Positions 17,896 to 52,924 of a stretch of DNA of 64,000 bases are shown one piece after another. The position numbers were made by a program, and so were the translations under genes. How positions within the stretch are numbered: position 1 is the stretch's first letter; every line of letters begins with the position of its first letter. Source of the DNA: Ditylenchus dipsaci (lineage: Eukaryota; Nematoda; Chromadorea; Rhabditida; Anguinidae). The stretch covers positions 1 through 64,000 of the forward strand of contig SADC01000396.1 in assembly GCA_004194705.1 (NCBI GenBank), given 5' to 3'. A model generated the notes under the pieces. That model was not told where the DNA came from and ran no database searches. It saw only the letters and a program-made list of their open reading frames with translations.

Positions 17896-18111
17896 TCCCA
17901 TTTGATTTTGTGAAAATCAAAAGATATCAAAAAAAGTTTTGTATATGAATGTTGGACATCTAATTTATTAAAAAAAACAACGAATTGTTAACCATACAAT
18001 AAATCAACAATTTAAAATAGTTCAAACAATGGGATATTAGCGCGGTTTCAAGCTTCATCCATTTCAATTGCATTTTCGTTTAATACAACCACATCCACAT
18101 GGCAATTTTAG

Positions 18112-18921
18112 GGCTCTAGGTGAATTCATCCTCAACCAATTCATCCTCGGTGAATTCATCCTCGGTGAATTCATCCTCCGGTGAATTCATCCTCTAACGA
18201 ATTCATCCTCGGTGAATTCATCCTCCTTTTGTTGTTCTGTTGTTTTTTTGCAAAAAAGTTAATTTTTTAAGAATAAATTTCGTTATGCTTTTGTATATTG
18301 CTTTTTTTTATTGAACTACGGCTGTCAATACATGCATTTAGCAGCTGTGAGCATTTAACATAATGTAATCAAAGCATAAGAACTTCTCACAATAAGCACA
18401 TCTGATAAAACATTGCTTTGAACAAGCACATTTTGAACTGACTGGATAATCTTGAAGGCAAAACTGTGGGGTGTGCGGAATTCCTGTGGCCTATTTTTAA
18501 CTTCTCGAACAGAACCGTGTTTATCATATCTAAAAAGAATGTGATATATATATAACGAAAATTTATTCTTAAATTTTGCAAAAAACAACAGGGGGGACCA
18601 AGGCAATTTTTGGTCATTTTTTAACTTTCTCAGGCCTCCAATTTTCGATTTTTGTTTCCACGGGGAAAAAATAAAATTTTATATAGTAAATCGACCATGC
18701 TCTACAAGATGGCGTTATCAGAATTTGCGTGTCGAAGTTTACAGTTCGTGGATGTCCCTTGTTAGTTTAAAAATTATAACAACTATATTTCCTGTCAAGA
18801 CAAAAAGGAGGATGAATTCACCGAGGATGAATTCACCGGAGGATGAATTCGCTAGAGGATGAATTCACCGAGGATGAATTCACCGAGGATGAATTGGTTG
18901 AGGATGAATTCACCGTCGCCC
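18112..18921. mobile_element. MULE-like element with GAATTCATCCTCGGT arrays
   Basis: Left end GGCTCTAGGTGAATTCATCC, right end GGATGAATTCACCGTCGCCC, with an exact 9-bp target duplication CAATTTTAG (18103-18111, 18922-18930). Arrays of five to seven repeats at both ends (18119-18230, 18808-18910) are inverted relative to each other. The inside has a Cys-rich reading frame on the minus strand. Confidence 0.85.
18348..18610 (-). CDS. Cys-rich fragment inside MULE-like element, unrecognised
   Basis: After a TTTTTAG acceptor near 18530 the minus strand reads through NRPQEFRTPHSFAF. In the adjacent frame it ends CACSKQCFIRCAYCEKFLCF, with a stop just after. The C-x-C, C-x2-C and C-x4-C spacing resembles a zinc-binding tail such as those at the C-terminus of some transposases. 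No catalytic core is visible, so it is a remnant or a cargo gene. I do not recognise the family. Confidence 0.35.
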
Positions 18922-18930
18922 CAATTTTAG

Positions 18931-19310
18931 TTCTGTTAAAGAGCATGCCGTGCGTTACACGGTGAAATTTGAATTTCCAAAAGGCGGGGACTTTAATGCG
19001 TGAGACAAAAACATTTTAAATTCAAAATTTCATTTCTATTGTATTTGATGTCGTATATCAGTCGTGTGCTGCGTATTCACTTGCAAATTTTGATATTCTG
19101 CTGTGTTACAGCCGAGAGATAAAGTTCACCGTGTGTCAGGTTTGTGTGTCATTTTTTAGTTACTTCTCACCAGTGTTAAGAACCGGGGTTTGAGCGAAAA
19201 ATCAATCAGAAAAGTTATAACAGTTTATAGTCCGAGCAAGGATCCGAGCAAATAAATGTAATACTAGTGAGAAATCTAAAACGAGAGGGAGGTTAAACCC
19301 AAGAATAATA
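18931..19310. other. Gene-free stretch
   Basis: No coherent frame, palindrome or array seen. Confidence 0.3.
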
Positions 19311-19894
19311 TTTTCGATGAAACGGTTTTACGACGAAACGTCGCGTACCCGTCACGGACGTTTCGTCGCAAGCCGTTTCATCGTAAGCCGTTTCGTCGTA
19401 AGGGACGTTTCTTCGTAAGGGATGTTTCGTCGTAAAATTGATTTTGTGGTAGTAGACATTATTTTCTCTAGACTAACAGTTAATAACTAGTTTTGGCTCT
19501 ATTCAACCATGGGGGAGGGAGAGTGGTTTGCCTTGGCCCCCTGTTGTTTTTTAGGTCTTTTAAGGCTTAGGCAAGGGTAGGCCAGCGTATGTGAGGACGG
19601 GCTCAAACATATCCTTTACTCATGTTTAACCCTAACACCACCATGGGTCAATGTGACCCAAAGCACTTTTGAAAAAGCTGTAAATTTTTTTTTAGACATT
19701 GTGAAAGGCTGATTTTTCTGACTTTGTTTGTCTTTTTGTTAGCTACATTTTGACTACTTTTCCTATGATTTGGCGATTTATTTTTGTTGGTGTATGAAAA
19801 AAGCAGCAGTGTATACCGTGGGGTCAATATGACCCCAATATACTATTTCATTATTTTAGTTGTTTCTATATCTTTATTTCTCTTTTTTAGAGCG

Positions 19895-20803
19895 ATGCCT
19901 AGTAGCTCAAGTAGCGAAGATTTTCCAAGTGAATATGTGCCATCGTCGGATGAAGGTGAAATCGACTCTCTCAGCGGTGATGCCTCCAGTAGTAGCGAAT
20001 CTCTCAGTGGTGGTGAAGAAGTCGAAGTGGTTCCGTCGTATGCGTCTAAGAATGGGAAAGAAGTTAGGAATTCTCAGCCTCCAGCAAATCGGGGAAGATT
20101 GTCAGCCGAAAATGTCCGAAAATGCCCGAAAACGTCCCGTGAATCGTATTCCTCTGTTTTCGGGTTTCAAGAAAAAGCTACTCTGGTTTCATACTGTCCA
20201 AAGAAAGGGAGAAAGCCAGTGATCCTTCTAAGCACGATGCATCATAACGCAAAAGTTTCAAGTAGTGAGCAAAAAAAGCCCGAAATAGTTACAGACTACA
20301 ATGCAACCAAAGGTAATTTTGTTCGGATATTTAGGCTTTACATGACTGCTTATCTCAGGAGGAGTAGACACCTTGGATCAAATGGTACGAACATATTCTA
20401 CGAAAAGGAAGACTTGTCGCTGGCCTATGGTAGTGTTTATTTATGGTTGCTTCGCTTTCTTACAAATATCTCTCATTTTATAGGTTATATTTTACAATAT
20501 TTGGAAATTGCTGCTGTCAATGCATTTGTGATCTGGTCAAAAATCAATCCTGGTTATCACGTTGGTAAGCGGCATCGTCGTCGTCTATTTCTTGAAGAGC
20601 TCGATAAAACATTAGCTTGCACTTTGCCCGTGGTGAATCCTCCAAGAACAATGCCAAGTCCTCAAACAGCATCAGGAAGCAAACGTGGTCGATGCTATTT
20701 GTGCCCAAGAGAAATCGATAAAAAAGTGTCATCAAAATGTAGTAATTGTCAAAAATTTACATGTGTTGGTCATTCAGTTTGTTATGAGTGTAGTGATCAA
20801 TAA
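19895..20803 (+). pseudogene. piggyBac transposase with the first two catalytic Asp deleted
   Basis: The start is the ATG at 19895, just after a TTTTTTAG acceptor; an ATG further upstream would begin inside the terminal repeat. The N-terminus is acidic (MPSSSSSEDFPSEYVPSSDEG), normal for piggyBac. Near 20100 it jumps to the late part of the DDE domain: SSVFGFQEKATLVSYCPKKG, LLSTMHHN, KKPEIVTDYNATKG. A 46-bp intron (20313-20358) brings in GGVDTLDQMVRTYSTKRKT with the third catalytic Asp. A second intron (20430-20483) leads to EIAAVNAFVIW, which needs one added base. The tail is a Cys/His zinc ribbon (CYLCPREIDKKVSSKCSNC), with a stop at 20803 and AATAAA overlapping it. About 250 residues holding the first two Asp are missing, so it cannot transpose alone. 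Confidence 0.85.
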
Positions 20804-20865
20804 AGTCATTTACTTGTGTGGAATAAATTCGATAATTTGGAACTATTTTGAATACTTTTTGTGAC

Positions 20866-21106
20866 GCTAGTAGCGAATACCCCCCCCCCCAACGATTTTC
20901 ACTTTTTTTACTTTAGTAAAAAGTACCCAAATTTATGTCCCAGACCCCGGAAATGTGCGCAAACTCTTCATTAGTCACAACTTCCGTACGCTGGCCTACC
21001 CCCAAGCCTAAGGGCCAAGCCTAAACTTGTTGTTTGCAAGGGTAGTTACAGCAATTTTTAAAGGTCGGATGCTTGGGGGGGGGGGGGTATTCGCTACTAG
21101 CGCCCT
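20866..21106. mobile_element. GCGCTACT/C-tract MITE inside piggyBac
   Basis: Ends GACGCTAGTAGCGAATACCC with a C10 tract and a G-tract with GGGTATTCGCTACTAGCGCC, flanked by CTTTTTGT. About 80 percent similar over its body to the copy at 30583-30828, including CATTAGTCACAACTTCCGTA. Confidence 0.7.
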
Positions 21107-21399
21107 TTTTGTTTTGGGGTCATATTGACCCCACGGTATACAACGCTAGTTTTTTTTCCGGTAGTGTTAGGGTTAATTCTATTTAAATTACGCTGGCCTA
21201 AACTTGCCTAGATTTAAGCTAAAAAAAATCACAATAAAAACTATTGAGCCGAGAGAAATTAATTATTTTAGCTGAAAATAATTAAAATCATTCAATTCTA
21301 TTCAGAATTGTGTCCTAAATACGATTTGCCAATGCTAAAGAGCAACTTGGCTTACAGGGACCCCAGTTCTGGAGTAGTTTCGTATCCTGTAGGGTATGC

Positions 21400-21560
21400 A
21401 GGTGTATAGAGGTGGTAGTACCAAGAAAATGGTATTCAGGTTGTTATACCAAGGCAGTGACGAGTATCGGTACTCAGGTGGAAGTGCTTAGGTATTGGTA
21501 TTTGTGTGGCGATGGCAGATTGTAGTTCCTAAGTGGTGGTATCTTGAAGGTAGTGCTCAG
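21400..21560. repeat. GGTGGTAGTACC-type degenerate repeats
   Basis: Scattered related words (GGTATTGGTATTTG, GGTGGTAGTACCAAG, GGCAGTACCC) suggest another decayed array end. No gene. Confidence 0.3.
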
Positions 21561-21604
21561 TCGGCAGTACCCAAATTGCACATCAGACTATTAAAACCAA
21601 GTAA

Positions 21605-21900
21605 TAGTCCACTTGGATCGAAAATTCTTTTTACTTTTTCGGGCTCCAAAACCTGTTTTCTGGACTGCTTCGGGTGTGCTAAAGATGGTTTGATAGTAGT
21701 CAAATGGCGTTTAGTCGGTATTTTTTTAGTTTGGTAAAATCGAGTTTTGGTGAAATCAATTATCTCTCAATACTCACCCTACAAAAAACTTTTTTTACTA
21801 TTATTAAACTATCTTCAGCATAAACGAGTTAGTCCAGAAAACAGGTTTTAAAACCCAAAAACGTCAAAAAAAATTCGATCCAAGTGGACGACCACTTGGT
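21605..21900. mobile_element. Palindromic MITE (GTCCACTTGGATCG ends)
   Basis: GTCCACTTGGATCGAAAATT and its complement near 21880 bound a hairpin with CCAGAAAACAGG at the inner stem. Confidence 0.6.
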
Positions 21901-22111
21901 TATGTTGGTACATGTGAAAAATGTGGATACAAATATTAATGAGAATCTTGATAAAAAAAAATGGTCTTAATTGTTTATATGTGCAGCTCAAATGACTAAA
22001 ACCCCATAAAATTATTCACACATAAGCATCACGTTGTTTCCTAATGTTAATAACTTTTGCGACGAAACTTCCTTACGACGAAACGGCTTGCGACGAAACG
22101 GCTGCATGACC

Positions 22112-22245
22112 ACAGTTGGACGCCGCCGCCGCCGCCCGCCGGCGGCGGCGCTGCGGCGGCGGCGAATTTTTTAGCCGGCGTGGCGGCGGGGCAAAAATCG
22201 CCGCCGCGGTGGCGCTGGCGGAAACGCGGGCGGTGGCAGAATTTG
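22112..22245. repeat. CG-rich GCCGCC palindromic repeat
   Basis: About 130 bp of GCC/GGC repeats with long dyads (GCCGCCGCCGCCCGCC then its complement), over 75 percent G+C in an AT-rich region. It looks like one end of a hAT-like element whose subterminal word is GGCGGC, or a CpG-rich leader of the next gene. Open frames here are low-complexity artefacts. Confidence 0.45.
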
Positions 22246-22287
22246 TTAAGTACTGTTAATTTTTTTTCCGCTCTCAATAAATAAGAA

Positions 22288-22659
22288 ATGGCGTTGGCAA
22301 TCGATCCTGCTGCTATCCAAGTGCCTGCTGCTGTGGTGTCTCTACGCATGCTGACCAATTTGGTAGAATCGCGCCTAGCCTTCAAGGTAACAACGACCAA
22401 AAACAACGACCACTATCGTCTCAAGCCCGTCTTGGTTTCGTGGAGCATGGTCAGACTGCTGCCTTGGAGTGACTCGCACTGTAAGTTTTCCCTACGTATT
22501 CTATAACAATCCTTATCATCTATCTTATATTCAGGCTGGACCGCCGAAGGAAGACAAGCTAGTCATTCATTTCCTGGAGTTGCTGCAGATGTCGCTGATG
22601 CAACCGGTTGTTCAAGAGTGGTACTCCTCAGGAATCACGCTGCCAGCTTCCGCTCAGTA
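22288..22659 (+). CDS. Small two-exon gene, function not recognised
   Basis: ATG 22288 opens MALAIDPAAIQVPAAVVSLR, which continues open to a good donor CACT-GTAAGT (22480). After an intron ending TATTCAG (about 22534) the sequence reads AGPPKEDKLVIHFLELLQMS, then QPVVQEWYSS, with a stop near 22657. An alternative donor AAG-GTAACA lies at 22386. The two exons join cleanly only if the 3' half of exon 1 is read in another frame, so one small deletion or a further intron is likely. An AATAAA lies near 22734. Codon use and the conserved-looking hydrophobic/acidic pattern suggest a real gene of about 110-125 residues. I do not recognise the family. Confidence 0.45.
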
Positions 22660-22739
22660 ATCAGGCAAGAACATCATTCGAAAGAACACATACGTTTGTT
22701 GTCGTTCGTTATTGTCGTTGTTGATGGTTTCTCAATAAA

Positions 22740-23250
22740 AAATGGAGAATGTAGTCCGTTGTATGTTGCACTAACTTTTCAATTAACAGAATGCTCTTTT
22801 GCGGCTTGTTAACATTTCGCATTTGTCATCGCACCCCTTATGAGGTCGGCACGGCGATGCAAATAGTATGGACCAGTGATTTCTGAGGACATAGATTTTA
22901 GTTATAAACTTTTGTTCGAAATTTTCCAGTTTGTTTTGATCAAACACCAGAACCTATTTGTCCGAAAATCCATCGTTTCCGGGTTTTCCTCACCGGTTTG
23001 ATTGATATTTCATGAAGTATTTTCTTAAAGGGCGCACGTTTTTTCTCTTATGTGTAGCGTAGATTCTAAGAATTCATTTAAGCTGTCAAAGAAAGAATAA
23101 TAGCATTTAGTAATGTCCGAAATTGAATTTTTTTTAACAGTATCATATCTCGTGCCACCCTACCCTTTACACGTAACCTTTTTTTCGCTGGGTCAAACCT
23201 TTGATAAGTTGCAATCAGCTTCTAAGAAGTTGATTAATTACCGTATTCGG
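22740..23250. other. Gene-free stretch
   Basis: No gene or strong repeat found between the small gene and the next palindrome. Confidence 0.3.
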
Positions 23251-23254
23251 CAGG

Positions 23255-24297
23255 AGTGCACTATACCGCGTAGCCCAAAACTGTCTTAAAGCGTGTTTTT
23301 TTGATGTGTGAGCAATTAAAACATACTTAAAACGTGTTTTAGAGTGCGGAAGGCCATTTTTGGAAAAAAAAATTTTGACCAAAATTTGACTTTTTGCCTT
23401 GGGGACCAAGGTAAACCACTTGGAGAGGGATTTTTTACCTCGTTTTTCTTACTGAGACTGGGAAAAAAGAGTATCTAGACGCATTTTTTGATCGAGAGCG
23501 TTGCTCGGATTCGTCTCCAAGGTAAGTGAGTGCGCGCATCTCTAACTCCCAAGCCCCTAGGGCTAAGAAACGGATGGTTGAAGTTGGAAAAAACAAAAAT
23601 GTACCAAAATGAAGTAAAAAGAGGAGTTTTATAACTCTTCCAACTTCAACCATCCGTTTCTTAGCCCTGTCTAATTCTAAAGAGCAGTCGACATGCCATT
23701 TTGTAGATAAATAAAAGAGCTTTTAGAAAATGCATTAAATGCTAGCTTTGGATATTAAAATTTTCAAGAATAGCTTGTATTTACGTGACCGAACAACCAT
23801 TTTCCTTACATTTACTTTGATTTTGACTAAAAGTCGACACTTTTATGTTGATGGTCATAAGTTTCTCAGAACAATTTAAAGCAAAAGCTTGACCTTCTAA
23901 ATTGCAGCTAAAATTCAGGGCTCTTAAAAAATGTATGCTGTAATCTTTCACCATTGAAGACAAGCATGTAAAAAAGATCAAAATGTTATCGGGCGGTAAC
24001 TTTTTTCGTGACCTTATTTTTGCATTGTTTCAAACTTTGCGATTTTTTTGCATAAATTTTAAATGAATCTTTTGAACAAAAATACCAGTTTTGTAGAGCG
24101 TGAAATTTTCTACAAGACTGTCTATTTCGTTTTCCCTTTCCGTTTGAAAATAATTAAATTCAAACAGTTTTTCTCAAAAAAATGTGGAAATTCTGATCGG
24201 GCGGTAACTTTTTTCCGCAACTGTATGTTTTAATTGCTCACACATCAAAAAAACACGCTTTAAGCCAGTTTTGGGCTACGCGGTATAATGCACTTTA
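23255..24297. mobile_element. Foldback element with long inverted ends, nested content
   Basis: Left end TGCACTATACCGCGTAGCCC and the following 90 bp are mirrored at 24205-24297 (GGGCTACGCGGTATAATGCA), including TGAGCAATTAAAACAT and complement. Inside, 23640-23665 and 23560-23585 (CAACCATCCGTTTCTTAGCC and complement) form a second nested hairpin. Confidence 0.65.
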
Positions 24298-24599
24298 GCC
24301 ATTTTCTTCTTATAACTCCCGGTCTAGGGATTCGAAATCGTGTTCTTGGCATTGTGTTTTGACCCACTTTTTAAAGACTGCTCTCAAACAACTTAGCACC
24401 CATTTTGTAGCTCATCTCAGTTGCTACAAAATGGGTGCTTAGTTCGGCCACGCCCAAAATCCCCCCGCGCCAAAATCCCCCGGGCCCAAAATCCCCCGCC
24501 CAAAATCCCCCGCCCAAAATCCCCCCGCCCAAAATCCCCCCGCCCAAATCCCCCGCACCAAAATCCCCCGGGCCCATAATCCCCCCCCCCCCCAAATCA

Positions 24600-25075
24600 A
24601 GCATGAAACGAAGAGCCGTGGACACACAAGAGGTATGTTTGCATATGGTGTCGCGGTCTTAATATTTTTGTTTCATAAACCGATCCAAATATTCACCAAC
24701 GCTCTTCAACGTCTTCCGGAAAGTGTGTCGTCAGGTCTAAGCAAGAGTGCAGTCCGCAAGATGGCAGGAAGAGTCCGGAGTCGAAACGGAATTCAAGTGC
24801 TACAAGCAAATGCAGTCGAAGAAATCAGGATCCCACAAGACCATCGCTACTACGGACAAGGTGGAGAACTCTTTGTGCTTGCCGACTCTGGAGAACATTT
24901 CGCTGATCCTGACAGGTCTTTAAATCATTTAATGTTTGTTAGCTGAATGTTAATTATTTATTTCCAGGATCATAATCTTTGGTCGCCAGCAGAACTTGCA
25001 ATGGGCAGCAGAAATGGTCAATGTGTATATGGACGGGACATTTAGCATCACTCCAGCTCCATTCACACAAGTCAA
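24600..25075 (+). pseudogene. MULE transposase, N-terminal half only
   Basis: Exon-like blocks: MKRRAVDTQE (24600-24630, donor GTATGT); ALQRLPESVSSGLSKSAV, then VRSRNGIQVLQA, IRIPQDHRYYGQGGE, VLADSGEHFADPDR (24690-24915); and after an intron ending TTTCCAG (24967) IIIFGRQQNLQWAAEMVNVY with MDGTFSITPAPFTQ (to about 25070). This is the region before and through the first catalytic Asp (DGTF) of FLYWCH-associated MULE transposases. The rest is replaced by a short GC-rich hairpin segment, so the copy is an internal-deletion derivative. It complements the half seen at 3-1026. Confidence 0.75.
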
Positions 25076-25194
25076 TAAGTTTCAACCAAATAATTCCAAC
25101 TAATTAATGGTAACACTATAGAATGCCCCCCAGCTAGCGAAAAATTTACTTTTCCTGAAGGGAAAGGACCCGAAAAGAAAGGGAAAGGACCCCT

Positions 25195-25233
25195 CAAGCC
25201 CCCTGCGCCCCCTTCGGGGGCGCAGGGGGCTTG
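25195..25233. repeat. 18-bp perfect GC hairpin with TTC loop
   Basis: CAAGCCCCCTGCGCCCCC, loop TTC, then its exact complement. Nearly the same hairpin appears at about 29008-29045 (imperfect) and 48824-48863 in unrelated surroundings. Confidence 0.85.
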
Positions 25234-25689
25234 GGGCTGGGGAAGAGAAAGATCTATCTGGATGCAGACAAAAGAATCTTGAGCCTGGTTCTGCTGTTTG
25301 AAAGAAGAAATCTCATTGAATATCTCAGAGGGCTGGCTAGAAACTTCATCATGGATCAGTAATCAGTTGCCTTTCATTCTCCGTTAATCTCTCGATTGTT
25401 GTTATAAAATTTGGTTATATTAGTAACAGTCTTTACTTTGGATTTTTGTGCGGGGGGATTTTTGGCGGGTTGATTATGGGCGGGGGATTATGGGGGGGGA
25501 TTATGGGCGGGGGATTATGGGCGGGGATTTTGGGCGGGGGGATTTTGGGCCCGGGGGATTTCGGCGCGGGGGATTTTGTCACGTACCGGCTTAGTTGCCT
25601 AACTTTTTGAGCAGTACTCAAAAAGTGGGTCAAAAACAGAGTGCCAAGAACGCGTTAGACCCGGGAGTTATTAGAAGAAATACGGTAGA

Positions 25690-26259
25690 TAGATTCAGTG
25701 GCAATGTGAACCATAGTAAATGGCTACTGCTGGTCCCGTTTATTTTGATGGTCATGTTCATCAAATCGCACAACTGAGCAGTTGCTGACGGCAACTAAAT
25801 CTGTGGAAGATTCCAGTCGATTCCTCGATACATTTCCTCTCTAGAACTCAGGAATTTCGACTAAATTGCTGAAAAGGTGGGCTAAAAAATAATGAGTGCA
25901 CCCAGTGGGATATGAACCTTCGACCTACGCAGGTTTGTGGGAATAAGCTGTGCCCACTTTCCTTGGTTTTGGTCGCTGCCGATTTCGTCTGTTTTGAAAA
26001 TCTATTGTGACCAGATATACCAGATATATATCGAAATTCGACCTTGCAAAAAGTTATGACCCTTCAGAAGTTTCAGAATTCCTTGGAACACCCTGTATAT
26101 AATTTCAAAATACGATTTTCGCTTGCTTACCCCCCCCTGAAAGTAGCCCTGAATCTCAGCTTTCTAACTAGACTTTAATTTCCTGCAAAAGGTTTCAAAG
26201 ATATGAAGATTTTTGGCTTTGTATGAAGTAACTTTTTCCACCAAGTTCCTCTATTCAGA
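25690..26259. other. Gene-free stretch with SINE-like and MITE fragments
   Basis: Around 25905-25950 the complement of a tRNA-like B box and flank (CCTGCGTAGGTCGAAGG) is seen. 26040-26097 is one end of a Tc1-like MITE (TTCCTTGGAACACCCTGTA). No gene. Confidence 0.35.
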
Positions 26260-26267
26260 TCCCTAAA

Positions 26268-26619
26268 TAGGGTTGTCGAGGCCTCGAAATTTTCGAGGCC
26301 TCGACTCGAAGACTTGAACCGACTCGAAAATTTTCGAGGCCTCGACTCGAAGACTTGAACCGACTCGAAAATTTTCGAGGCCTCGACTCGAACCGAAACT
26401 CGAAACTCGAAAATTTTCGAGTTTTCGAGTCTAAAACTCGAAATCGAGGCCTCGAAACTCGAAAAATGACTAGAAATTTTTTTTCGATGCCTCGAAACTC
26501 GAAAGAAGGACTCGAAATTTTTTTCAAGCCTCGAGACTCGAAAAAAAGACTCGAAACTCGAAAATTTTCGAGTTTTCGAGTCCAAAACTCGAAATCGAGG
26601 CCTCGACTCGACAACCCTA
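26268..26619. mobile_element. hAT MITE with GAGGCCTCGA arrays
   Basis: Ends TAGGGTTGTCGAGGCCTCG and CGACAACCCTA, identical over 10 bp to the full hAT at 11044. The flanking 8-mers TCCCTAAA (26260-26267) and TTCCTAAA (26620-26627) match at 7 of 8. The whole inside is made of TCGAGG/CTCGAAA words; no coding capacity. Confidence 0.8.
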
Positions 26620-27040: not shown

Positions 27041-27044
27041 AGGC

Positions 27045-39240: not shown

Positions 39241-39497
39241 TTTATACATTTAAAGAGGTAAAACCCCAACTGACATGAGTTCCAACTGACATGGCCCAAC
39301 TGACATGAGTCCCAACTGACATGACCCAACTGACATGAGTCCCAACTGACATGACCCAACTGACATGAGTCCTAACTGACATGACCCAACTGACATGAGC
39401 CCCAACTAACATTCATTGCTTAGTAATAAACAATGAAACAAAATGATTTATTTAATGAGTTAACAACAAAATAAGATCTAATTATAACGACAATTCA

Positions 39498-40279
39498 ATA
39501 AAGGTTAAATTCTTCGATGTTCTCCACAGCCCTTCTTTCTTCCTCCTCCTCGTCCATCTCTTGCTCGGCAGCTGGCTCCTCTTCTATTTCTTCGTCCACA
39601 ATTTTAGCTGGCCTGTTGTTGTATCCCATGAGGTATCCAATGTGCAGCAGGAAGGCTGTGAGTTGTTCTTAGAAGTTTTCGTCTTCAATTTGGTACTCCA
39701 GAATCGCTGCAAATAGCTTTTGTGCATCGGCTATCTTGGCGGTAAAACTTCGACTCGCTACAATTGTGACTCGCTACATTTTTTGCGACTCGCTACACTT
39801 TAACTTTTTTGTCCATTTCACCAAAAACATGTACTACATGTTCCCCTATCCCTTGCAATGTGGAGTGTGCTGGTCTTGGCCGCGAAGCGGCCAACAATTG
39901 GTCTGGTACAACAATCTGTACCCACATAACAATAGAAAATTCAATCTGTAGCGAGTCGCAATTGTAGCGAGTCGCAGTAGCGAGTCACAATTTGTAGCGA
40001 GTCGCAGGTCGTCCATCTTGGCGGACAGTTCAGCTGAGTCTCGTGATTGTTTCCTTGGTGACTGGCGCACATTCTTCACATCGCTCGCGTTCTCTTTCTC
40101 GGCGTGTTGCAGGTAAAACCACAAATATAACAATAAATTAAATTATATTGATTAAAAATAATTACTTCTTGAAAGTTGACAAATCCACTCTCCGAGAGGC
40201 GAGTCGACGCGCAAGAAATTTTAGAGCTTTCCATGATAAGACTCTGCGGTGTTAGTTGACCTCTGCCCTTGCATTCCAT
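39498..40279 (-). pseudogene. Gene carried in MULE-like element, disrupted, family unknown
   Basis: ATG at 40279: MECKGRGQLTPQSLIMESSK, exon to 40166 (donor AA-GTAATT). The second block (about 40105-40025) reads KENASDVKNVRQSPRKQSRD then SAELSAK. The frame is split there by the element at 39743-40014. Taking out that insertion and one copy of its 10-bp duplication restores the frame into IADAQKLFAAILEYQIEDEN, then one in-frame TAA, then LTAFLLHIGYLMGYNN and an acidic tail, ending near 39498. No transposase motif is visible. It may be cargo or an element-specific accessory protein. I do not recognise it. Confidence 0.5.
39743..40014. mobile_element. Nested 272-bp MULE-like MITE (GCGACTCGCTACA arrays)
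   Basis: Ends TAAAACTTCGACTCGCTAC and GTAGCGAGTCGCAGGTCGTCC, flanked by exact 10-bp duplications ATCTTGGCGG (39733-39742, 40015-40024). Three to four array units lie at each end. It interrupts an exon of the larger element's gene. Confidence 0.9.
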
Positions 40280-40764
40280 AGAGAGAAAAGATATCGTTGA
40301 GAGAGAGCCATGTGTTCGTTAAACATATCATTTGACCAAATTCACCAATTCAAAAATAATACTTGAAATACTCGATGATTTCGAATAGATTTGCAGCAAT
40401 TTCTCCCAGCATATTGAACTTGAGGCGGGTATGTTGAGTAATGTCAGTTGGGTCATGTCAGTTGGGACTCATGTCAGTTGGGTCATGTCAGTTGGGACTC
40501 ATGTCAGTTGGGTCATGTCAGTTGGGACTCATGTCAGTTGGGTCATGTCAGTTGGAACTCATGTCAGTTGGGTGTCGTTCATTTAAAGAATGAGGTTAGT
40601 GCTATAAAAAAACGATACAAAAGAACAAAAGTTAGCTGAAAGGAGGAGCAGTGAGTTTATCAGAAAATGTAATCGGGTACTCGAATTCGTAGTCGGAGGC
40701 GAAACTGTTCACATAATCTAGAGGTATCGAAGACGCTGTCTTAAGTGTAGTATGTGAACCCAGT

Positions 40765-43300: not shown

Positions 43301-43303
43301 CCT

Positions 43304-43509: not shown

Positions 43510-44712
43510 TTACAATGAGTGTGGTACTAAGTGTGAGATTTGGCGTGTTTTTAACGCGGGAATAGCTGTGCTTTTTTTCTTCACTGAAACTTTTTTTTCT
43601 GTTGGTACCATTTCGTAGCTAAGATTCAGGGCTTCAAAATGAGCTACAGACACTTGTCCGGATGTGGTCCTGGGTGCGGACTTCAACATTTTTACCCCAA
43701 TTTTTTGGATCAAATTTAATTTTTGCCCCTAAAGTCTGAATTCTTGCCCCTTTTTCAAATTTCAAAAAAAACTGAAATCTTGCCCCTTTTTAATTAAAAA
43801 TAAAGTAAATTTCTCCAATTTGGCGCCTTCGATGAAAAATCGAAGGAATTTACCCGATTTTGATTAAAAAGGGGCAACATTTCAGAAAAAGGGCAAGGTT
43901 TTATTTATTTTTTGTTTGAAATTTGAAAAGGGGCTAAAATAATTAAAAAGGAGCAAGAATTCAGACTTTAGGGCAAGAATTCAGATACATCCATTTTTTA
44001 ATCAGATGTGGCTTTTAAATAGCTCATTTTGAAGCCATAAACCTTAGCTACAATTTGGTGCAGTCGAGTCTCGATATAGTGGCCCTCCGATATAGTGACA
44101 CCCTCGCTATAGTGGCACCCTAAGCCGAATTTGGCTGGCCGGTAAAGAAAATAAAGAAAGTTTACCCCCGCTATAGTGGCACTTCATTATAGTGGCACCC
44201 TCCATATAGTGGCACTAGTTTGCTTTCGGCTATGAGGAAATGACTAGAGTGGTACCCTTGATATGGGTCGTGAAGAAAGCGGGGTGATTAAGGACAATTG
44301 AGTATAGTTGAAGAGGGTGGCTTATTTGTTTGACCAGAAAATGCGATTTCGGCGCGGAAATGTCGTGGCGCGCAAATGTCGGATAACTTCTTATTGTCTT
44401 CTAACTATCTGTTATTAAACAAGACAATGGTGTTCAAAGAAAAGTAAACTCACAGATTTCTTCCAAGTTTTTTAATGTTATTTTCGATTGTTTTGTTAGA
44501 AATAAAATTATTGTTTTAAAAAGTCTTGGTATAGTGGCACCCTCGCCATAGTGGCACCCGCGATATAGTGGCCCCTGATGGTCAGTCCCCGGAGTGCCAC
44601 TATATCAAGACTCGACTGTACCAACAGGAAAAAGTTTCAGTGAAGAAAAAAATTACAGCTCTTCCGCGTTAAAAACACGCCGAATCTCGCACTCAGTCCC
44701 ACACTCATTGTG
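43510..44712. mobile_element. Foldback enclosing two nested MITEs
   Basis: Outer arms: CAATGAGTGTGGTACTAAG to GTTTTTTTCTTCACTGAAAC on the left, mirror at 44640-44712. Inside, 43607-44060 is a palindrome (CAAGAATTCAGACTTTA and mirror), next to the pogo-like MITE 44061-44618. It sits between duplicated BET exons. Confidence 0.65.
44061..44618. mobile_element. pogo-like MITE with TATAGTGGCACCC repeats
   Basis: CAGTCGAGTCTCGATATAGT to TATCAAGACTCGACTG. At least eight copies of TATAGTGGCACCC lie at both ends. Confidence 0.7.
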
Positions 44713-44731
44713 AACGTGCCTTTATTCTCAC

Positions 44732-44992
44732 CTTGAGCTCTTTTTCACGTCTTTTTCACATAAGCATCTTCAGCTTTTTTATTGGTTAACGAATTCCAGC
44801 CAGCCATGTTGGACAGACCACCACCTCCTTGATTGGAGCTATTATCGGAGGGCAGGAGGTGATCCAGCACAGACCCATCTATACCCGCACTGATGTATTG
44901 GGGTTTTTGGTTTGAAGCAAAGGGGATGCTTCACTGTGCATTATGCTCTTGGGTTTGTTAGCAGTAGCGGCGGCGGCAACTGACGCAAATGC
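44732..44992 (-). pseudogene. Duplicated BET exon ([16 protein letters not shown])
   Basis: Close copy of 54276-54002 starting [20 protein letters not shown], with [14 protein letters not shown] and [17 protein letters not shown] in shifted frames and a short deletion replacing ELFRKQA. Probably dead. Confidence 0.65.
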
Positions 44993-45414
44993 AGCTGAAA
45001 AACGAGAATTGGGGCTGCGACTAGCAAAACGACTTGATTGCAAACTATTTCGGTAAATCCTCGGCTTTTTAGACAAATTTGTAAAAACTGTCTATTCAGT
45101 TTCTTGCTATAAATTTGACGAATTTTGCAACTCATTTTATAGAAGAGATTCTGCGCTAGAAAATAGATGGTCGTTTATATTTTTGAAAATTGTTTGAAAA
45201 AGGGAAGGGGACTTGAAGCTGACCTTATGACCTAGGGCTTCAACCGTTCATCTTTCTTACACCAAGTTCAAGTTCTTACACGATAATAAGAAAGAAATAA
45301 AAAATAAAAAACTTAAATGCGAAAACAATAAATGCAGTAATAATAAATTAGCGTGAGCAAGCCCCTTGCAGGGCGAAAAAATTCAAAAAAAAAAGGTTAA
45401 TCATTTTTCTGTGG

Positions 45415-46135
45415 CAAATTTACTTTTTTTTGTAGCAAAAATGTTTTTTTGTGGCAAATTTACTTTTTTTGTAGCAAATCCCATTTTCGCCTGTAGCACA
45501 TATGCTTGAGCTAGTGTGCTTATTTATTCCAAATTATCAAAATTTATATTATGATTCTGTGAAAGACGTTGACTTCATAAAAGACAGGGGAATTAATTGC
45601 TGGTAAAGCCGCTGGGCTCTAGGTATAATCTAACATACACACACCTGGCACACTCTTGGCTGCTTCATTACTCAACATCCTCTGATGGATCAGTTATGAA
45701 ATTTTCAAATTCAAGCTTACCGAATTCACCGTGGATACAATGCTGATGATAATTCCATCAACCTTAGCCACATTTTGCTCCACCATTTTGAGAAGAGCAA
45801 CACTTCAGTCCGTAAATTTTGGATCTTAAACGGGCTTTTTCTTGTGAAGAAAAGAGTGTTGGCCGAAAAAGCCGGCTGAAAATGGGATCTTAACCTCAGG
45901 AATTTGCAATTTTCGACTGCTCGACCGAACCGAAATTCTCGGTTCGGGTTTCTCGAAAATCGGTTTTGGTCTAAAAGGACTGAAAACGATACGCGGATTA
46001 AGTGTATCGACAGATGTATATATATTTCCAAAGTTTTTAGACATAAATAAGCACACTAGCTCAAGTATATGTGCTACAGACGAAAATCGGATTTGCTACA
46101 AAAAAAAGTAAATTTGCTACAAAATATATTGGCCA
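45415..46135. mobile_element. Foldback with TTTGTAGCAAAT arrays
   Basis: Arms 45415-45535 and 46043-46135 carry ACTTTTTTTGTAGCAAATCC and GTGTGCTTATTTAT with their mirrors. The inside has a minus-strand open block (45802-45726, ALLKMVEQNVAKVDGIIISI then a GTAAGC donor) that looks exon-like but could not be assigned. Confidence 0.55.
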
Positions 46136-46139
46136 CAAA

Positions 46140-46266
46140 AAAATGATTTTCGTACGTTCGATTTGACGAACGTTCGAGTTTGAAATTTTCGAACGAACGT
46201 TCGATTCGAAGTCGAAGGTTCGAAAAAGTCTCAAACATTTCGAACAATGTTCGAAATCGAACGTTC
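46140..46266. repeat. Fragment of the TTCGAA hAT end
   Basis: GAACGTTCGAGTTTGAAATT and CGAACGAACGTTCGATTCGA words as in 11055-11320; no termini or duplication. Confidence 0.65.
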
Positions 46267-46359
46267 TACTTACAATAGTCTCAATTTTTTTTCCTAAAGT
46301 CAAAAATAATCAAACAGTCTCTACAATATCCTTTTGCAGACTAACTTAGTAATCCGACT

Positions 46360-46838
46360 ATGCATTCACCTTCTGAGACTGTCAAAGACATATTGGTCTT
46401 TTTGGACCACACTGACCAAAGACGTTTGCTCTTCACTTCACGTCTTTTCTTCTTACATGTGAAACCTCTTTTGAAGAAGAGATACTTAGTGGTAAGGATT
46501 GATTTTTTTCGAGTTGTGTTATTGGTCAGCTTGAAGACCGAAATAAAATATTTTTCGCTTAACCCTCACTTACTGTAATTGGCCATTTTTTAGAGAAGAG
46601 AAAAATTAATGGACTAAAACATAAAAAGACAGCTAGAGCATAGAATATTTAGAAACTAAAGATTTGTATTTAGATTGAGCGTCTAGAGAGAGCTATGATT
46701 TTAGGGTGTATTGACCACATCAGATTTATAGAAGATGAGGAAAAGTTGGCCGCCTACTTGGAAGCTCGAAAATCGTATTTGGAAGCTAGGAAAAAAACTG
46801 AGTTCCGCACGACCAATATTCTCAGTATTTATTGTTGA
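46360..46838 (+). CDS. Small F-box-like protein, two exons
   Basis: Exons 46360-46491 and 46674-46838 give an intact frame of 99 codons (98 residues). Residues 5-35 (ETVKDILVFLDHTDQRRLLF and TSRLFFLHV) have the Leu/Ile spacing of a short F-box, which links substrates to SKP1-cullin ubiquitin ligases. The second exon is charged (RFIEDEEKLAAYLEARKSYL) and probably helical. The F-box match is weak and short, so the function is tentative. Splice sites are GTAAGG and TATTTAG. Confidence 0.45.
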
Positions 46839-46889
46839 AAGTTTTCGGTATTGAATGAAAGAAGATCATGTTTCCAAAAGCCACACTTC

Positions 46890-46931
46890 AAAGAGTTCTG
46901 TCTATGCCTTTAGGCATAGACAGAACTCTTT
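46890..46931. repeat. 19-bp perfect hairpin with TTTA loop
   Basis: AAAGAGTTCTGTCTATGCC, loop TTTA, exact complement. It lies about 50 bp after the F-box-like gene, perhaps in its 3' UTR. Confidence 0.8.
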
Positions 46932-47618
46932 AAACCTTATGCTACACCCGGTAGGTTATTAAAAACACAACAAAGCAAGCATCTTATAAATTCATAATCT
47001 ATAAGAATTAATTACCGTATTTCTTATAAAAAGCGCCCCCCCCTCTAATGATCGCCGCCCTCTAATAAGTGACCTCCCTCCTGGAAGGCATCCAAAAAAC
47101 AAGCGTTAAGAAATATCACATCACATCCACAAGAAAACACAAAGCCAATAGCACAATTTTGAACGAGGAAGTTGGTGCCAATTAGGACAAATACGGCAAT
47201 ACCAAGGGTTGGGCGATAGTAATAGTCCAGCGAATGTTACCGGAAATATTCCCGAATAACACTGGAGAATATCACTGCCTGTCCGAAATCTGTAATAATC
47301 TATTTAATCTTGTACGAATTTTTTCAAACATCTTTTAATAAAAAAATAATAATTCAATTTGAAAAAAATTGAAATAAAAAATTTTAAGACAAACCCCTGC
47401 TTCTGACACCGAATTCGCGCTCAGCATGGTTAGTTTGCTTGAAAACAAACTCTTAAAACAAAAACTCTCTAAGAAATTTTGAATTCCTCTTGAGACAACG
47501 AAGATTTGAATTTAAAACTTTTTACATTTACGATTTTTTCGAAGAAGAATGTCACCGTCTTTTGGACTTACCGGGGACATTCCAAAAACATTACACCGGT
47601 GATTATCCCAACCCTAGT

Positions 47619-49522
47619 ACAGTTAACGCTCTCCATAAGATACCCTCCCCATAAGATACGCTCTCTACAAGATGCTCCTTGAAACTATTTTGGTTGGTTT
47701 TGCACTGAATAAGGCTAAATCAACATTCTCCTTAAAGGGCCATTGCCGTCTCCGACAACGGTTGTCCCCGCCAATTCAATTTTTTTTCCTAATCGTTAAA
47801 CTTATGTACGGATTCTTCAACTTCAAAACCATACCTAAAATTAAATTTAGGCCTTGTTTTATTAGAAACCAAGCTGAAAAAAAACATACGTTGAATGATA
47901 AGGCGAGAAAATTTGAATTGGCGGGGACAATTCAAAACAGGTGGCAAAGGCCCTTTAAGGTACGCTCTACATAAGATACCCCTAGACACAGTGCCGAGTC
48001 TTTAAATACCGCTCTCCATAAGATACTTTCAAAATCTACTCATCAAAAAGACGAATTTTTAAAAAATATGCCGTATTCTCTCTAATAATCACACACTAAG
48101 ATTTCGAAGTTAGGGCCATTTTTCGTTTACAATTTGAAGATTTTTCGGAGATTGAAAAATAATCCCACAGTGGGATTATTAAAGAGAATACGGTGACTAA
48201 AATTAAACTTTTTGCCTTAGGGAACCAATGTAAGGTGTCGGTTTATTGAGGGTTTACCGTAGTCGAGGCTTGACTGTGGCACACTTTTGTCCATTTTTAT
48301 TTGTCGAAAATGAGTATCCCACGCATAAAGACACTTTCAAGATGCGTTGAATGGTTTAATCTTCAAGAAAACATTATTTATGTGCATTTCGTAATTTTTC
48401 GGAAGAGCACAACATCCCCTAAAAGACCATTTTACACCATTATACAAATTAAATTGATAAGCCGAAAAATGGAAAAAGACAGAGAGCTGAAATAAAGCTT
48501 TGAGCTGTAAAAAATCTCAATTCAATGGCTTGATAACAAAATTTGACCCTACTTGGATATACCCCCCCCCAAATCAACTTTTTTAAAATGTTCCCAAACA
48601 CCCTATATCGACCTGAAATCGCCTCAGAAGCTCAAAAAGACATTATTTTTAAGTTCTGGTGAAAAGAAAATTGAGTTTTGGGCACTTTGAATTTCGACTT
48701 TTTACCTGTTTTATCATGTTCTGGTCACTGGAGCTGGGCAAAAATAGTCTCTAAATGCATTTTTTTCAAGAGTCTTGCTCGGAATTATGTCTAAGGTAAG
48801 TGAGTGCGCGCATCTCTAACCAACCAAGCCCCCTGCGCCCCCTTCGGGGCGCAGGGGGCTTGGTTGCTTGGGGTTGAGATGCGCACACCCACATACCTTA
48901 GACGCAAATCACTCGAAAGTGACTCTGGAAGCATAAAAATGTGTGCATACCAGAGTTTATTTATGCGGTAGGCCCCCGTATTCAAAACTATGTTCACCAT
49001 CTTCCTTTTTGTTAGAAGTCGGCACCTTTTTAGTCCATTTCCACCCAAATACAGACCTAAATCCCTTGAAAAATGGTCAAAATGGGTGATTTTGGGTGGT
49101 CCAGAAACTCGATTTTCTATTCACCAGAACTCAAAAATAATGTCTTTTTTGAGCTTCTGAGGCGATTTTAGGTCGATATAGGTGTTTGGGAACATTTTTA
49201 AAAAAGTTGATTTGGGGGGGGGGGGTATATCCAAGTAGCGCCCAAAATTTTTTGGTGAAAACTATTCAAATATGGATGCATTTATCCTAAAAAAATAGGT
49301 TCTTGAATTGACAAAATAGGTGTTGGATTTCATTATTTTTGACTAAGATCCGGAAAAAAGTTGGAACAAATAAACTAGGCGCTGGATTTTATCATTATAT
49401 ACGAAAATGCTCCTTGTAAGTTATATAAGTTACGATTTTCAGAAAATTTGGCTATATACGCTCTCCATAAGATACCTCTGAGGCGGTCCCCTAGGGGTAT
49501 CTTATGGAGAGCGTCGACTGTA
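47619..49522. mobile_element. pogo-like element, 1.9 kb, with nested insertions
   Basis: Left end ACAGTTAACGCTCTCCATAA, right end TTATGGAGAGCGTCGACTGT; the word CTCTCCATAAGATAC recurs at 47631, 47957, 48009 and 49460. Nested inside: a foldback at 47736-47961 (GTCTCCGACAACGGTTGTCC, same family as 4265-5275), an ACCGTATTT MITE at about 48070-48195, and a C/G-tract element at 48546-49242. Confidence 0.65.
48546..49242. mobile_element. C/G-tract foldback element
   Basis: Ends ACCCTACTTGGATATACCC and GGGTATATCCAAGTAGCGCC, flanked by CAAAATTTG and CAAAATTTT (8 of 9). Its middle is closely related to 28780-29160, including the GC hairpin (48824-48863) and ACCAGAGTTTATTTATGCGG. Confidence 0.75.
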
Positions 49523-49524
49523 AT

Positions 49525-50420
49525 ACCGAAAAAATTTTCCGCATAAAAATGATTGAAAATTGCACATAAATAGTTTTAAAGACCTTTAGAAAAAAATGTA
49601 AAAAAACTTTAGAGAAGACCAATAAAATCTTTTTTGGGAAGCGTGCAGAGACACACTGAGCCATCGAGCTTATCGTTTCTCACTATTTTTGCTTGGCAAT
49701 CTTCTCAGTCGTTGCCCTTGCATTTTAGCATGATCTTTCTCTGAACCACTTGTCGATGCATTCGCTAACCGTAGCGTAGAGGTGCTAAAGAAATGATAAC
49801 AATGACCAAACTTTTTATCAAGCAAAACCTAACAAGTGCTCAGCCTCTCTTTTAATTTCATATTCAGAAAGATTCCAGGAGACAAGCAAAACTAAATTTT
49901 AAAAAACAGGTGAAATGAAAAACTGCAGATATTTTTGAAAATTAAATTTTTTTATTGTCTTTTTAAAGGAGGGGTGAAAGCTGTTAAGGAGATAGTCTCG
50001 ACACGAAAGCATTCCTCCATGTTTTGTGTTTTAAAAGTGTGGTTTTAGAGCCAAATTTTATCAACAACTTGGTATTACGATGTCGGACAAACTTTTGCAG
50101 AATTAAAAGTTGTATTAACATCATTAATATCAGAATTTTGGATTCTCACAAAATGCCCTACAAACGAAAAAGGAAACGGAGAAAAACCATCGAGAAAAGG
50201 TTGATTATTATTTTGTTTTTTTACAAGTAACAAACCTTTCTAATAAATTTTAATTTTTAGATAATTTTTCAGAAAAATGTTCTTAGTCTGTTACAAATGT
50301 CCTAATACAACTTTTAATTCTGAAAAAATTTGCTTGTATCGCAATACCGGGTTCTCATGGCTCGTACGAAAATCCGGAGTTGGAGTCAAAGTATTTGGCC
50401 GTTGTAGAGAATCAAGGGTT
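49525..50420. other. Gene-free stretch
   Basis: No convincing gene. An open block at 50024-50230 ends in a very basic tail (KRKRKRRKTIEKR) with no other support. Confidence 0.3.
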
Positions 50421-50424
50421 TTTT

Positions 50425-50630
50425 TTCGCCTTGGTCCCACTTGCTTTTCAAGCCTTTTTCTAGGCCTAGGTTCAGGAAAAAATAGGCCAGCGTATGTTAG
50501 GATGGACTCAAACGTATTTTAGACTCATATTTGAGTCCGTCCTAACATACGCTGGCCTACCCTTGCCTAAGCCTAATGCCTAAAAGATCACAATAAAAAC
50601 AACAACGGAAACCAAGGCAAAAAACCCCTG
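50425..50630. mobile_element. Palindromic MITE (CGTATGTTAGGAYGGACTC arms)
   Basis: GCCTTGGTCCCACTTG to AAACCAAGGC, with AATAGGCCAGCGTATGTTAG and its mirror. Same family as 31015-31195. Confidence 0.65.
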
Positions 50631-50759
50631 TTTCTCTACTAGGGCCGTATTTGGCATCGTAAAGACACTTTACTTCAGCTCCGACTCTGACGCCACCTCC
50701 GACTCCAACGTGTTCACGAAGTCGAGGTTAGAGTATTATTGATTAGTGGACACCCATCA

Positions 50760-51027
50760 CCGTATTATCTCTAATATACCGCCACCCCTTTATTCAAAAT
50801 GAAGTTTGTGGCACTGAGTTTTTGAATTATTTTTCGAAAGTTTCTCTCAAGCAAGTCACCATCCTCATCCTAGCCAGTGAGATGCTTTATAAAATGAGGG
50901 GTAACTTGCCCAGGAGAGGTTTTGAGAAAGTGGGTCAAAAACGCAATGCCAAACAACGATTTTGAATTTGGGCAGGTGGGGGGGGGGGGGGGTGTGGTGC
51001 CGGCCTATTAAAGAGAATACGATATAC
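50760..51027. mobile_element. ACCGTATT-family MITE
   Basis: ACCGTATTATCTCTAATATACC to TTAAAGAGAATACG, with inner words GAGGGGTAACTTGCC and GTGGGTCAAAAACGC shared with 24330-24390 and 61490-61590. Confidence 0.6.
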
Positions 51028-51203
51028 CTAAAATTGGCCTTTCTTTAGCTGGCCATGAGCTGTAGGTGACGGCAAACTCGCAACTATGGATCTGATCAAT
51101 CAAGAAACTTGATAAATAAAACGGTTTCTGGCAAAAACTGCTCTCACCAACCACAAATCCTTGTTTCTGAACGAGCCATCACCAAAAAGCACACTTAGAA
51201 AAC

Positions 51204-52386
51204 GAACGACTATCAGTTCGTGGTACTTTTGATTCGTGGAAATCAGTGTTTCCAAAAACAGAACACAGAATTAACCACAGAATTTTTAAAGTGCTCGTAA
51301 TTGTGTTTTTGTATGGTATTTTTGCTAATTTTTTGTGCGTTTTGTTCAGCGGTAAAAGTTGCGGTAGGGACCATACGCGTTTCGCAAATTTCCACTAAAA
51401 CAGTAAGAAATTTGACTTTTGTTCCGAAAAAGTCAAAAACAGAATTCTTTTTCTGTTTTTGACTTTTTCGGAACAAAAGTCAAATTTTCTTACTCTTTAG
51501 TGGAAAATTTGCGAAACGCGTATGGTCCCCTACCGCAACTTTTAACGCTGAACAAACGCACAAAAAATTAGAAAAAATACCATACAAAAACACAATTACG
51601 AGCACTTTTAAAAATTCTGTGGTTAATTCTGTGTTCTGTTTTTGGAAACACTGGTGGCAATCGATTCGTGGTACTATCGATTCGTGGTACTTTTCATTTG
51701 TGACTGGTTAAAATACTTTTCGACCCTGAAAAGGCTCCTTTCTGCTGGAAATGTCTCTTTGGCACTAGGTCTATTCGTCCACTGGCAATTTATTCATGGT
51801 CAATTCGTTTACATCTCTTATGATCCCTTAAAAACAAAAAAAAATCTTTGTAAAGACCAAAATTCAGAATCTCAATACCCTGGGTATCTACCCACCCAAA
51901 GGTGGTCGACCAGAAATGTGTGGAGGTTCGCATGGTGCTTTGTATCAGATCTGTTTGCATCATAATTACTTCTTTTGCATCAGATATACACTTTCCAAGC
52001 TCAAAAACACCCCAAAACATTCCAAACTTTTCAAAATAGTCCTGAAAACCACAAACCTCTCTGATCAACGGTTGATTGATTGATCAGCCTCAGCCGGTAT
52101 TTATGGCCCCTTTGACCCTTACTTTAATTTTACTCACCTCGTAGTGAAGATTTGACTTGCAGCATCCTTGATTAGAACAATGTCGAGAGATTCCGAACGG
52201 TGCTCGCGATGGCCAACGATTCCAAAAAAATCAAGGGGAATAAAACCACCATCCGATACAAAAGGATGTGAATCTGATGCACTTCAATAACCTTGAAAAG
52301 GAGCCTTTTCAGGGTCGAAAAGTATTTTAACCAGTCACAAATGAAAAGTACCACGAATCGATAGTGCCACGAACTGATACTTTACC
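51204..52386. mobile_element. MULE-like element with ATCAGTTCGTGGTACTTT arrays
   Basis: Left end GAACGACTATCAGTTCGTGG, right end CCACGAACTGATACTTTACC, flanked by TAGAAAAC on both sides (51196-51203, 52387-52394; 8-9 bp). Inner TIR parts GACTGGTTAAAATACTTTTC and mirror. A hAT MITE (51244-51653) is inserted in the left array. The inside (51760-52300) has no recognised gene. Confidence 0.75.
51244..51653. mobile_element. hAT-like MITE, near-perfect 200-bp hairpin
   Basis: Ends CAGTGTTTCCAAAAACAG and CTGTTTTTGGAAACACTG, flanks GTGGAAAT and GTGGCAAT (7 of 8). The arms meet at about 51452. Confidence 0.75.
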
Positions 52387-52924
52387 TAGAAAACACAAAT
52401 TGGGTATATTTAGTCACTTTTGGAGAGAGATCAATGCTTTCCTAACTTTCTTGTATGATCTGTTTTTTTGTTTCTTGTTACAAGTATGCTTTGAAGCACA
52501 CAAACTTCAAAATCTATAGAAAAAATACACAAAAAACACATTCAACAAATGATCTTTTCGAAAGATCAAACACGAATTTTAAAAAATCCAGTTTTTATGT
52601 TTTCAGAACAATTTTTTATTATCAATTTTTATTATTCCTGAAAATAAAAATTTAAACATTTGCATATATATTTGTTTATAAATTGTGCTATAATCAAATA
52701 TCAAAGATACAATTCAGCTTATTGTAAGCTGCTTTTGCAATCTCAAAAAGTCAATAATTTAGAGTTTATACACAGAAACACACACAAACACACAATATAG
52801 CAGTAGTAATAGTAGTAGTTGTGTTGATGCTAATAATAGAAGGTAAGACGATCTTTTGCGCCGACATTGAGCTGGTTTACAGGGTGGCTGGAGGACACAG
52901 TGCTGGTTCAGAATAGCGGTAGCC

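What the first reader, a model, noticed from the sequence alone, without database searches (positions are those of the whole stretch)
18103..52394. MULE-like elements share a tiny terminus but each has its own tandem-repeat terminal array
Five elements with confirmed 8-10 bp target duplications (18112-18921 CAATTTTAG; 24446-25588 GCTTAGTT; 39257-40579 CATTTAAAGA; 39743-40014 ATCTTGGCGG; 51204-52386 TAGAAAAC) begin with about 10 bp of one of two related forms, GGTAAARY/GGTACGTGAC at one end and GRACGACN or GGGCGACGG at the other, followed at once by 3-10 tandem copies of a 13-17 bp word inverted at the far end. The word differs completely between elements (GAATTCATCCTCGGT, CCCAAAATCCCCC, CCCAACTGACATGAGT, GCGACTCGCTACA, TCAGTTCGTGGTAC). 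Two of the family carry MULE transposase parts. Drosophila FB elements have repeat-built ends, but one family with a constant tip and freely replaced arrays would be unusual. A lock-and-key set of transposase-binding arrays that stops cross-mobilisation is one reading.
Basis: partly seen in the sequence, partly recalled or inferred. Interest (0 to 1): 0.85.

Follow-up and report, generated by a model that had tools for sequence, protein, structure and literature searches.

The report
Nematode MULE transposons with family-specific array ends
These are cut-and-paste jumping genes of a known kind in a nematode; they share two different short end tips but each family carries its own repeated word beside them, probably the docking site for its own enzyme.

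Summary
The five elements are real transposons, all with perfect 8-9 bp target duplications; three boundaries are corrected. They belong to a large set of Mutator-like (MULE) elements of the Phantom/Tm1 type in a tylenchid nematode, probably Ditylenchus dipsaci. Arrays of 12-18 bp period occur in 67 of 73 MULE loci examined (7 of 19 window tiles; 0 of 40 shuffled loci). I recorded 27 words from MULE loci.

The words are not unrelated. They start at nt 11 (52 of 56 ends) and share a degenerate core, and word distance follows transposase distance, so arrays diverge with their enzyme rather than being freely replaced. The two tips differ in 27 of 28 elements with perfect duplications (20 of 21 families), although the adjoining arrays are 93% alike; which tip lies upstream of the gene flips repeatedly.

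The architecture (unlike 7-bp tips, 3 bp, ~14-bp units, 9-bp duplication, FLYWCH + MULE transposase) was published for Meloidogyne Tm1 in 2011; mosquito Muta families have their own repeats. New here is the scale: many words behind one two-tip design in one genome. A link between DNA-binding domain and word beyond common descent is only weakly supported. Cross-mobilisation is untested.

The parts
18103..18111 (.). Element 1, left target duplication CAATTTTAG (right copy 18922-18930)
18112..18921 (.). Element 1, no transposase recognised; tips GGCTCTAGG / GGGCGACGG; array word GAATTCATCCTCGG, left array 18119-18230, right array 18803-18915
   Evidence: its right end also at more than 20 other places
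24437..24444 (.). Element 2, left target duplication GCTTAGTT (right copy 25589-25596)
24445..25588 (+). Element 2, deleted MULE; tips CGGCCACGCC / CGGTACGTGAC; word CAAAATCCCCCGCC; arrays 24451-24590 and 25450-25578; MULE transposase fragments about 24700-25075 (read by eye against L083)
   Evidence: full-length relative L083 with FLYWCH + MULE
39248..39256 (.). Element 3, left target duplication ATTTAAAGA (right copy 40581-40589)
39257..40580 (.). Element 3; tips GGTAAAAC / GAACGACA; word CAACTGACATGAGT; arrays 39265-39412 and 40433-40573; interrupted by element 4
   Evidence: longer relatives L082, L084
39733..39740 (.). Element 4, left target duplication ATCTTGGC (right copy 40015-40022)
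39741..40014 (.). Element 4, 274-bp MITE nested in element 3; tips GGTAAAAC / GGACGACC; word CGACTCGCTACAAT
   Evidence: (40 of 1428 first-look candidates scored, all 98% or more identical)
51196..51203 (.). Element 5, left target duplication TAGAAAAC (right copy 52387-52394)
   Evidence: read by eye
51204..52386 (.). Element 5; tips GAACGACT / GGTAAAGT; word C(A/G)(G/A)TTCGTGGTACT; left array seems interrupted by a fold-back insert about 51241-51650

Best explanation
These are Phantom/Tm1-type Mutator-like cut-and-paste transposons and their deleted derivatives. Each end is a bipartite site: about 8 terminal bases in one of two forms (T-form GGGTVYRY, A-form GGGANNNG, or the variants GGTAAARY and GRACGACN), which I infer is the cleavage end read by the conserved MULE/DDE catalytic core, followed after 2 bases, in fixed register, by about 3-28 tandem units of a ~12-bp word plus a short spacer, which I infer is bound by the transposase's FLYWCH (WRKY-like) zinc finger. 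Arrays at the two ends of an element are kept alike, while the two tips are kept different. Words diverge along with their transposases, so related elements end up with different words. Shown: anatomy, duplications, register, two-tip pattern, FLYWCH + MULE coding, co-divergence with the transposase as a whole. Inferred: that FLYWCH binds the word, that the catalytic domain reads the tip, that the two tips must be unlike for synapsis, and that orientation flips come from recombination between the inverted arrays.
Against: No binding or transposition data. The DNA-binding-domain link beyond the catalytic domain is weak and lost within lineages A and B. The presumed DNA-reading segment of FLYWCH is only slightly more variable than the rest (identity 0.34 vs 0.43 among 9 proteins here; 0.44 vs 0.64 among 7 other animal or metagenome proteins). 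Families B5 and B6 (L013; L038, L068) have two T-form tips, so unlike tips are not absolutely required. Lineage C (tips GGCTGTAC...), L071, L076 and L085 do not follow the tip/core pattern.
Confidence: 0.75

Rival explanations
1. The arrays mainly serve expression or anti-silencing (as VANC targets do in VANDAL elements), not transposase docking; words diverge under pressure from host silencing.
For: VANC targets form tandem repeats that vary considerably between related TEs (PMC5735166, abstract and one section). Arrays here flank the gene on both sides.
Against: The array begins in fixed register 10 nt from the cut end at both ends, and is kept in 274-bp copies without any gene, which fits docking better than transcription. 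No second ORF was looked for systematically.
Confidence: 0.12
2. The arrays are neutral slippage products; any terminal sequence may become a tandem array, and word differences are drift with no recognition role.
For: Arrays expand far beyond apparent need in places (28 units in L012; about 1.6 kb of the element-3 word on contig C1304). Word distance is explained by overall descent about as well as by the DNA-binding domain.
Against: Uniform ~12-bp unit with a looser spacer, fixed register, shared core across lineages and in Tm1, presence in most MULE loci.
Confidence: 0.08
3. Shared tips are chance or a mere G/C-start convention and the elements are unrelated families sampled together.
For: MULE termini commonly start with G/C (PMC13359780, Discussion); the tip search itself required tips to begin GG, CGG, GA or AA.
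Against: Agreement extends over 8 nt (22 T-form tips GGGTVYRY; 19 A-form tips with G at position 8 in all 19), one form at each end, across families whose catalytic domains are 31-92% alike.
Confidence: 0.05

Closest known systems
Tm1, Mutator/Foldback family of Meloidogyne (PMC3169594; passages, section 9 and part 1 of section 11 read)
   Same: FLYWCH + MULE transposase placed by its authors in Phantom, unlike 7-bp tips (A1, A2) outside inverted arrays, 3-bp motif, ~14-bp units starting CGATTC/CGTTTC, mostly 8-10 bp TSD, TIRs of an element 93% alike, many non-autonomous copies
   Different: One word consensus per Meloidogyne species there; here 27 words in one genome, in several transposase lineages, with tip orientation flipping
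Muta families of Aedes aegypti, Phantom group (PMC5225508, PMC6446971; passages read)
   Same: 9-15 bp subterminal tandem repeats in 10 of 12 long-TIR families, terminal motif of 10 bp (Muta1) or 8 bp (Muta5), FLYWCH predicted in 13 of 14, 8-9 bp TSD
   Different: Muta1 tip is described as an imperfect palindrome; no comparison of repeat words with DNA-binding domains in the passages seen
VANDAL/VANC of Arabidopsis (PMC5735166; abstract and one section read)
   Same: MULEs whose tandem motifs are read by a TE-encoded protein and differ between relatives
   Different: Motifs are in non-coding regions and bound by an anti-silencing protein; VANDALs lack clear TIRs (PMC6446971 passage)
Galileo (P superfamily) long TIRs (PMC3688188; abstract and passages read)
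   Same: Tandem repeats in long TIRs carry extra transposase DNA-binding-domain sites, tested by EMSA
   Different: THAP domain, P-type transposase; the paper says that binding to Foldback and Phantom repeats was untested

Membership tests
Phantom / Tm1-like MULE | MULE (PF10551) catalytic domain | tested here: met
   115 genome matches, all but one marked over the cut-off, five of them only with neighbours in the frame; L019 and L016 ORFs over the cut-off, L083 (26.0) and L082 (20.5) below 27.6
Phantom / Tm1-like MULE | N-terminal FLYWCH zinc finger | tested here: met
   PF04500 over cut-off in L019, L063, L083; no hit in L065 (lineage B, divergent) or in the L082 piece tried; fold match to 2RPR
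Phantom / Tm1-like MULE | 8-10 bp target-site duplication | tested here: met
   81 sequences examined, 47 inverted array pairs, 28 with a perfect 8-9 bp duplication, 19 without; L084 dropped as spurious, W5 (one of the 19) perfect by eye, so 28
Phantom / Tm1-like MULE | Inverted subterminal tandem arrays | tested here: met
   67 of 73 MULE loci with an array, 34 of 73 with an inverted array pair inside the fetched stretch
Phantom / Tm1-like MULE | Unlike short terminal motifs outside the arrays (Tm1) | tested here: met
   27 of 28 perfect-TSD elements
Phantom / Tm1-like MULE | Placement inside the Phantom clade in a MULE-wide tree | not tested
   Only a homology search (Ditylenchus, parasitoid wasp, predatory mite, aphid and unnamed proteins) and a tree of this genome's own families
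VANDAL | Encodes a VANC protein | not tested
   No search with VANC domains was made
VANDAL | Lacks or has degenerate TIRs | tested here: not met
   Inverted arrays at both ends

The most novel reading that the evidence does not exclude
A two-part address system: a conserved rule that one end be T-form and the other A-form (comparable in logic to pairing unlike signal ends), plus a fast-diverging FLYWCH-word pair that tells sister transposons in one genome apart. In lineage B the residue after the conserved Tyr/Phe of FLYWCH is W or V in the four families whose word has C at position 6 and F or Y in the six with T (10 of 10; two changes on the catalytic tree for nine of them; found after the fact), a candidate letter of a recognition code readable from this genome.
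Probability: 0.3. Interest if true: 0.7.

Novelty: new member of a known kind. Interest (0 to 1): 0.45.

Why it matters
One genome offers some 27 natural pairs of a transposase and its presumed binding word, 22 of them with a FLYWCH sequence in hand. That would make the DNA-reading rules of FLYWCH, a domain also used by animal transcription factors, directly testable, and would show how sister transposons may separate their traffic. The pattern of unlike tips generalises a feature reported for the Tm1 family.

Tried and rejected
Rejected: arrays as freely swapped cassettes. Rejected: that the DNA-reading segment of FLYWCH is unusually variable only here. The residue-base match in lineage B could not be tested on new families, since the six last loci showed no new B family. 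No autonomous partner was found for elements 4 and 5 in the rows listed (capped at 40 scored). In one search the catalytic row of family B7b drew in an unrelated piece, so B7b was left out of the Mantel tests and the tree; families A10-A13 had no FLYWCH peptide in the table and were left out of the Mantel tests. Note 5 called B5 and B6 sisters; the tree does not show that. Tip identity of 0.46 ignored one-base register slips; one search gives 0.50. Literature searches: (open-licence PMC only; Marquez and Pritham 2010, the Phantom paper, was not seen, known only through citations).

Full report
Setting. The window is contig C395 of a 226,978,389-base assembly in 1359 contigs. The best named relatives of one MULE ORF are Ditylenchus dipsaci proteins (four at 55-64% identity over 40-57% of the query, a fifth at 44%); a NET-domain ORF in the window is nearest to Meloidogyne hapla (65%); D. 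dipsaci is listed at 227.2 Mb with 55.7% repeats (PMC11118728, passages). The host is therefore a tylenchid nematode, probably D. dipsaci; this is an inference.

Observation. All five elements were verified and three boundaries corrected. Element 4 is a 274-bp element with an 8-bp duplication; the 40 copies scored of 1428 candidates are 98% or more identical. Element 3 with element 4 inside it recurs on C92, C158, C406, C412, C1198 and C1339.

Genome-wide picture. A search for the MULE domain gave 115 matches, 150 of 504 candidates being scored. I took 73 of these places as loci of 2.3-3.6 kb (L009-L081) and six more later (L085-L090; three of these six show an array by the same test). Arrays of period 12-18 lie in 67 of 73, an inverted pair in 34 of 73 (limited by locus length), against 7 of 19 tiles of the window, which itself is rich in such elements, and 0 of 40 letter-shuffled loci. 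By eye and by the tree I sorted transposases into lineages A, B and E (related), G, D, and more distant ones including C and the element-3 lineage H.

Ends. In 81 sequences the script found 47 inverted array pairs and 28 with a duplication of 8-9 bp at tips required to begin GG, CGG, GA or AA; all 28 duplications were perfect. One (L084) was spurious and dropped; element 5 was added by eye, giving 28. In 27 of 28, or 20 of 21 families, the two tips differ; L013 has two identical T-form tips, and so, nearly, have L038 and L068, which lack a duplication. Twenty-two tips are GGGTVYRY; nineteen are GG(G/A)ANNNG. Mean identity of the two tips is 0.50 with registers matched and of the adjoining arrays 0.93, 23 loci. 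The T-form lies upstream of the gene in 10 and downstream in 12 of the 22 gene-bearing elements with unlike tips (my count, orientation by catalytic hits); Fitch parsimony over 15 families (one coded ambiguous) needs six flips on the catalytic tree, while shuffled labels need 4.78 on average and never more than six in 2000 shuffles. So orientation is labile. Flips without loss of the unlike pair fit recombination between the inverted arrays; this is inference.

Words. The word's first base is a C at nt 11 at 52 of 56 ends (the misses are both ends of element 1 and the left ends of L063 and L083). Words of 27 families differ by 5.91 of 12 positions on average, against 8.47 +- 0.07 for shuffled letters. 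Core pattern C-[ACG]-[AT]-[AT]-[AT]-[CGT]: 28 of 32 words including the window's, chance 0.021 in a fixed register and 0.30 if any register is allowed; the pattern was drawn from these same words. Within arrays positions 1-12 are 85-96% uniform, 13 and 14 are 80 and 72% (26 families; A8 had too few units). Published Tm1 units (CGATTCAGTATCGC, CGTTTCAGTATCGC) follow 7 + 3 bases, the same register and core, so the design is probably older than this genome.

Coupling with the transposase. Over 20 families (A, B, E): word-DBD r = 0.35, p = 0.0002; word-catalytic r = 0.33, p = 0.0002; partial word-DBD given catalytic 0.15, p = 0.035; partial word-catalytic given DBD 0.09, p = 0.13. With 21 families and the word core: partial DBD 0.27, p = 0.0014; for positions 7-14 it is -0.02, p = 0.59. 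Within A (9 families) partial DBD 0.12, p = 0.22, while catalytic stays at 0.48, p = 0.0016; within B (9) -0.19, p = 0.80. Nineteen such tests were run, uncorrected. DBDs are less alike than catalytic cores (0.43 vs 0.64 in A; 0.54 vs 0.68 in B). So co-divergence is shown for the element as a whole, not specifically for the DNA-binding domain. A post hoc residue-base match in lineage B (W/V with C6, F/Y with T6; 10 of 10 families) is a hypothesis only.

Comparison with print. The architecture is that of Tm1 and of Phantom-type Muta elements; tandem motifs differing between related MULEs are known for VANDAL/VANC; transposase binding to repeats inside long TIRs is shown for Galileo. In the listings I saw no paper that compares many array words of one genome with their transposases or states an unlike-tip rule across families; I opened eight papers, none of them whole, and subscription papers are not covered.

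Verdict. A known kind of transposon with an unusually instructive local radiation: new member of a known kind, interest moderate.

Noticed in passing
window 1156-1290: Right end of another element: tip GGGTACGTGAC and word CAATTCACCGCC, the same word as full-length L044; its other end was not found in the window and may lie off the contig.
   Followed up: partly
window 19300-19435 and 22049-22103: Two arrays of the word CGTTTCGTCGTAAG abut head to head at about 19349, one with a GGGTACGCGA tip and the other with a GTCACGGA tip, as if two ends of one family were joined.
   Followed up: no
window 18237-18766: The interior of element 1 is itself a fold-back repeat, found nearly whole at 13 other listed places without a listed match to element 1's ends beside it.
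   Followed up: no
window 11051-13865: Inverted pair of 40-bp TTCGAA-rich tandem arrays about 2.8 kb apart; no element assigned.
   Followed up: no
window 44055-44720: Arrays of a TATAGTGGCACCC word, a different repeat type.
   Followed up: no
G000 contig C1304:84728-86384 and L012:2807-3234: Array words expanded to long satellite-like arrays (element 3 word over about 1.6 kb; 28 units at one end of L012), suggesting that ends may seed satellites.
   Followed up: partly
L016, L043, L046, L049, L053, L058: Lineage C MULEs have another tip (GGCTGTAC...) and A/T-rich words such as CATTTCGTAACA and CATTTTGCTAAG.
   Followed up: partly
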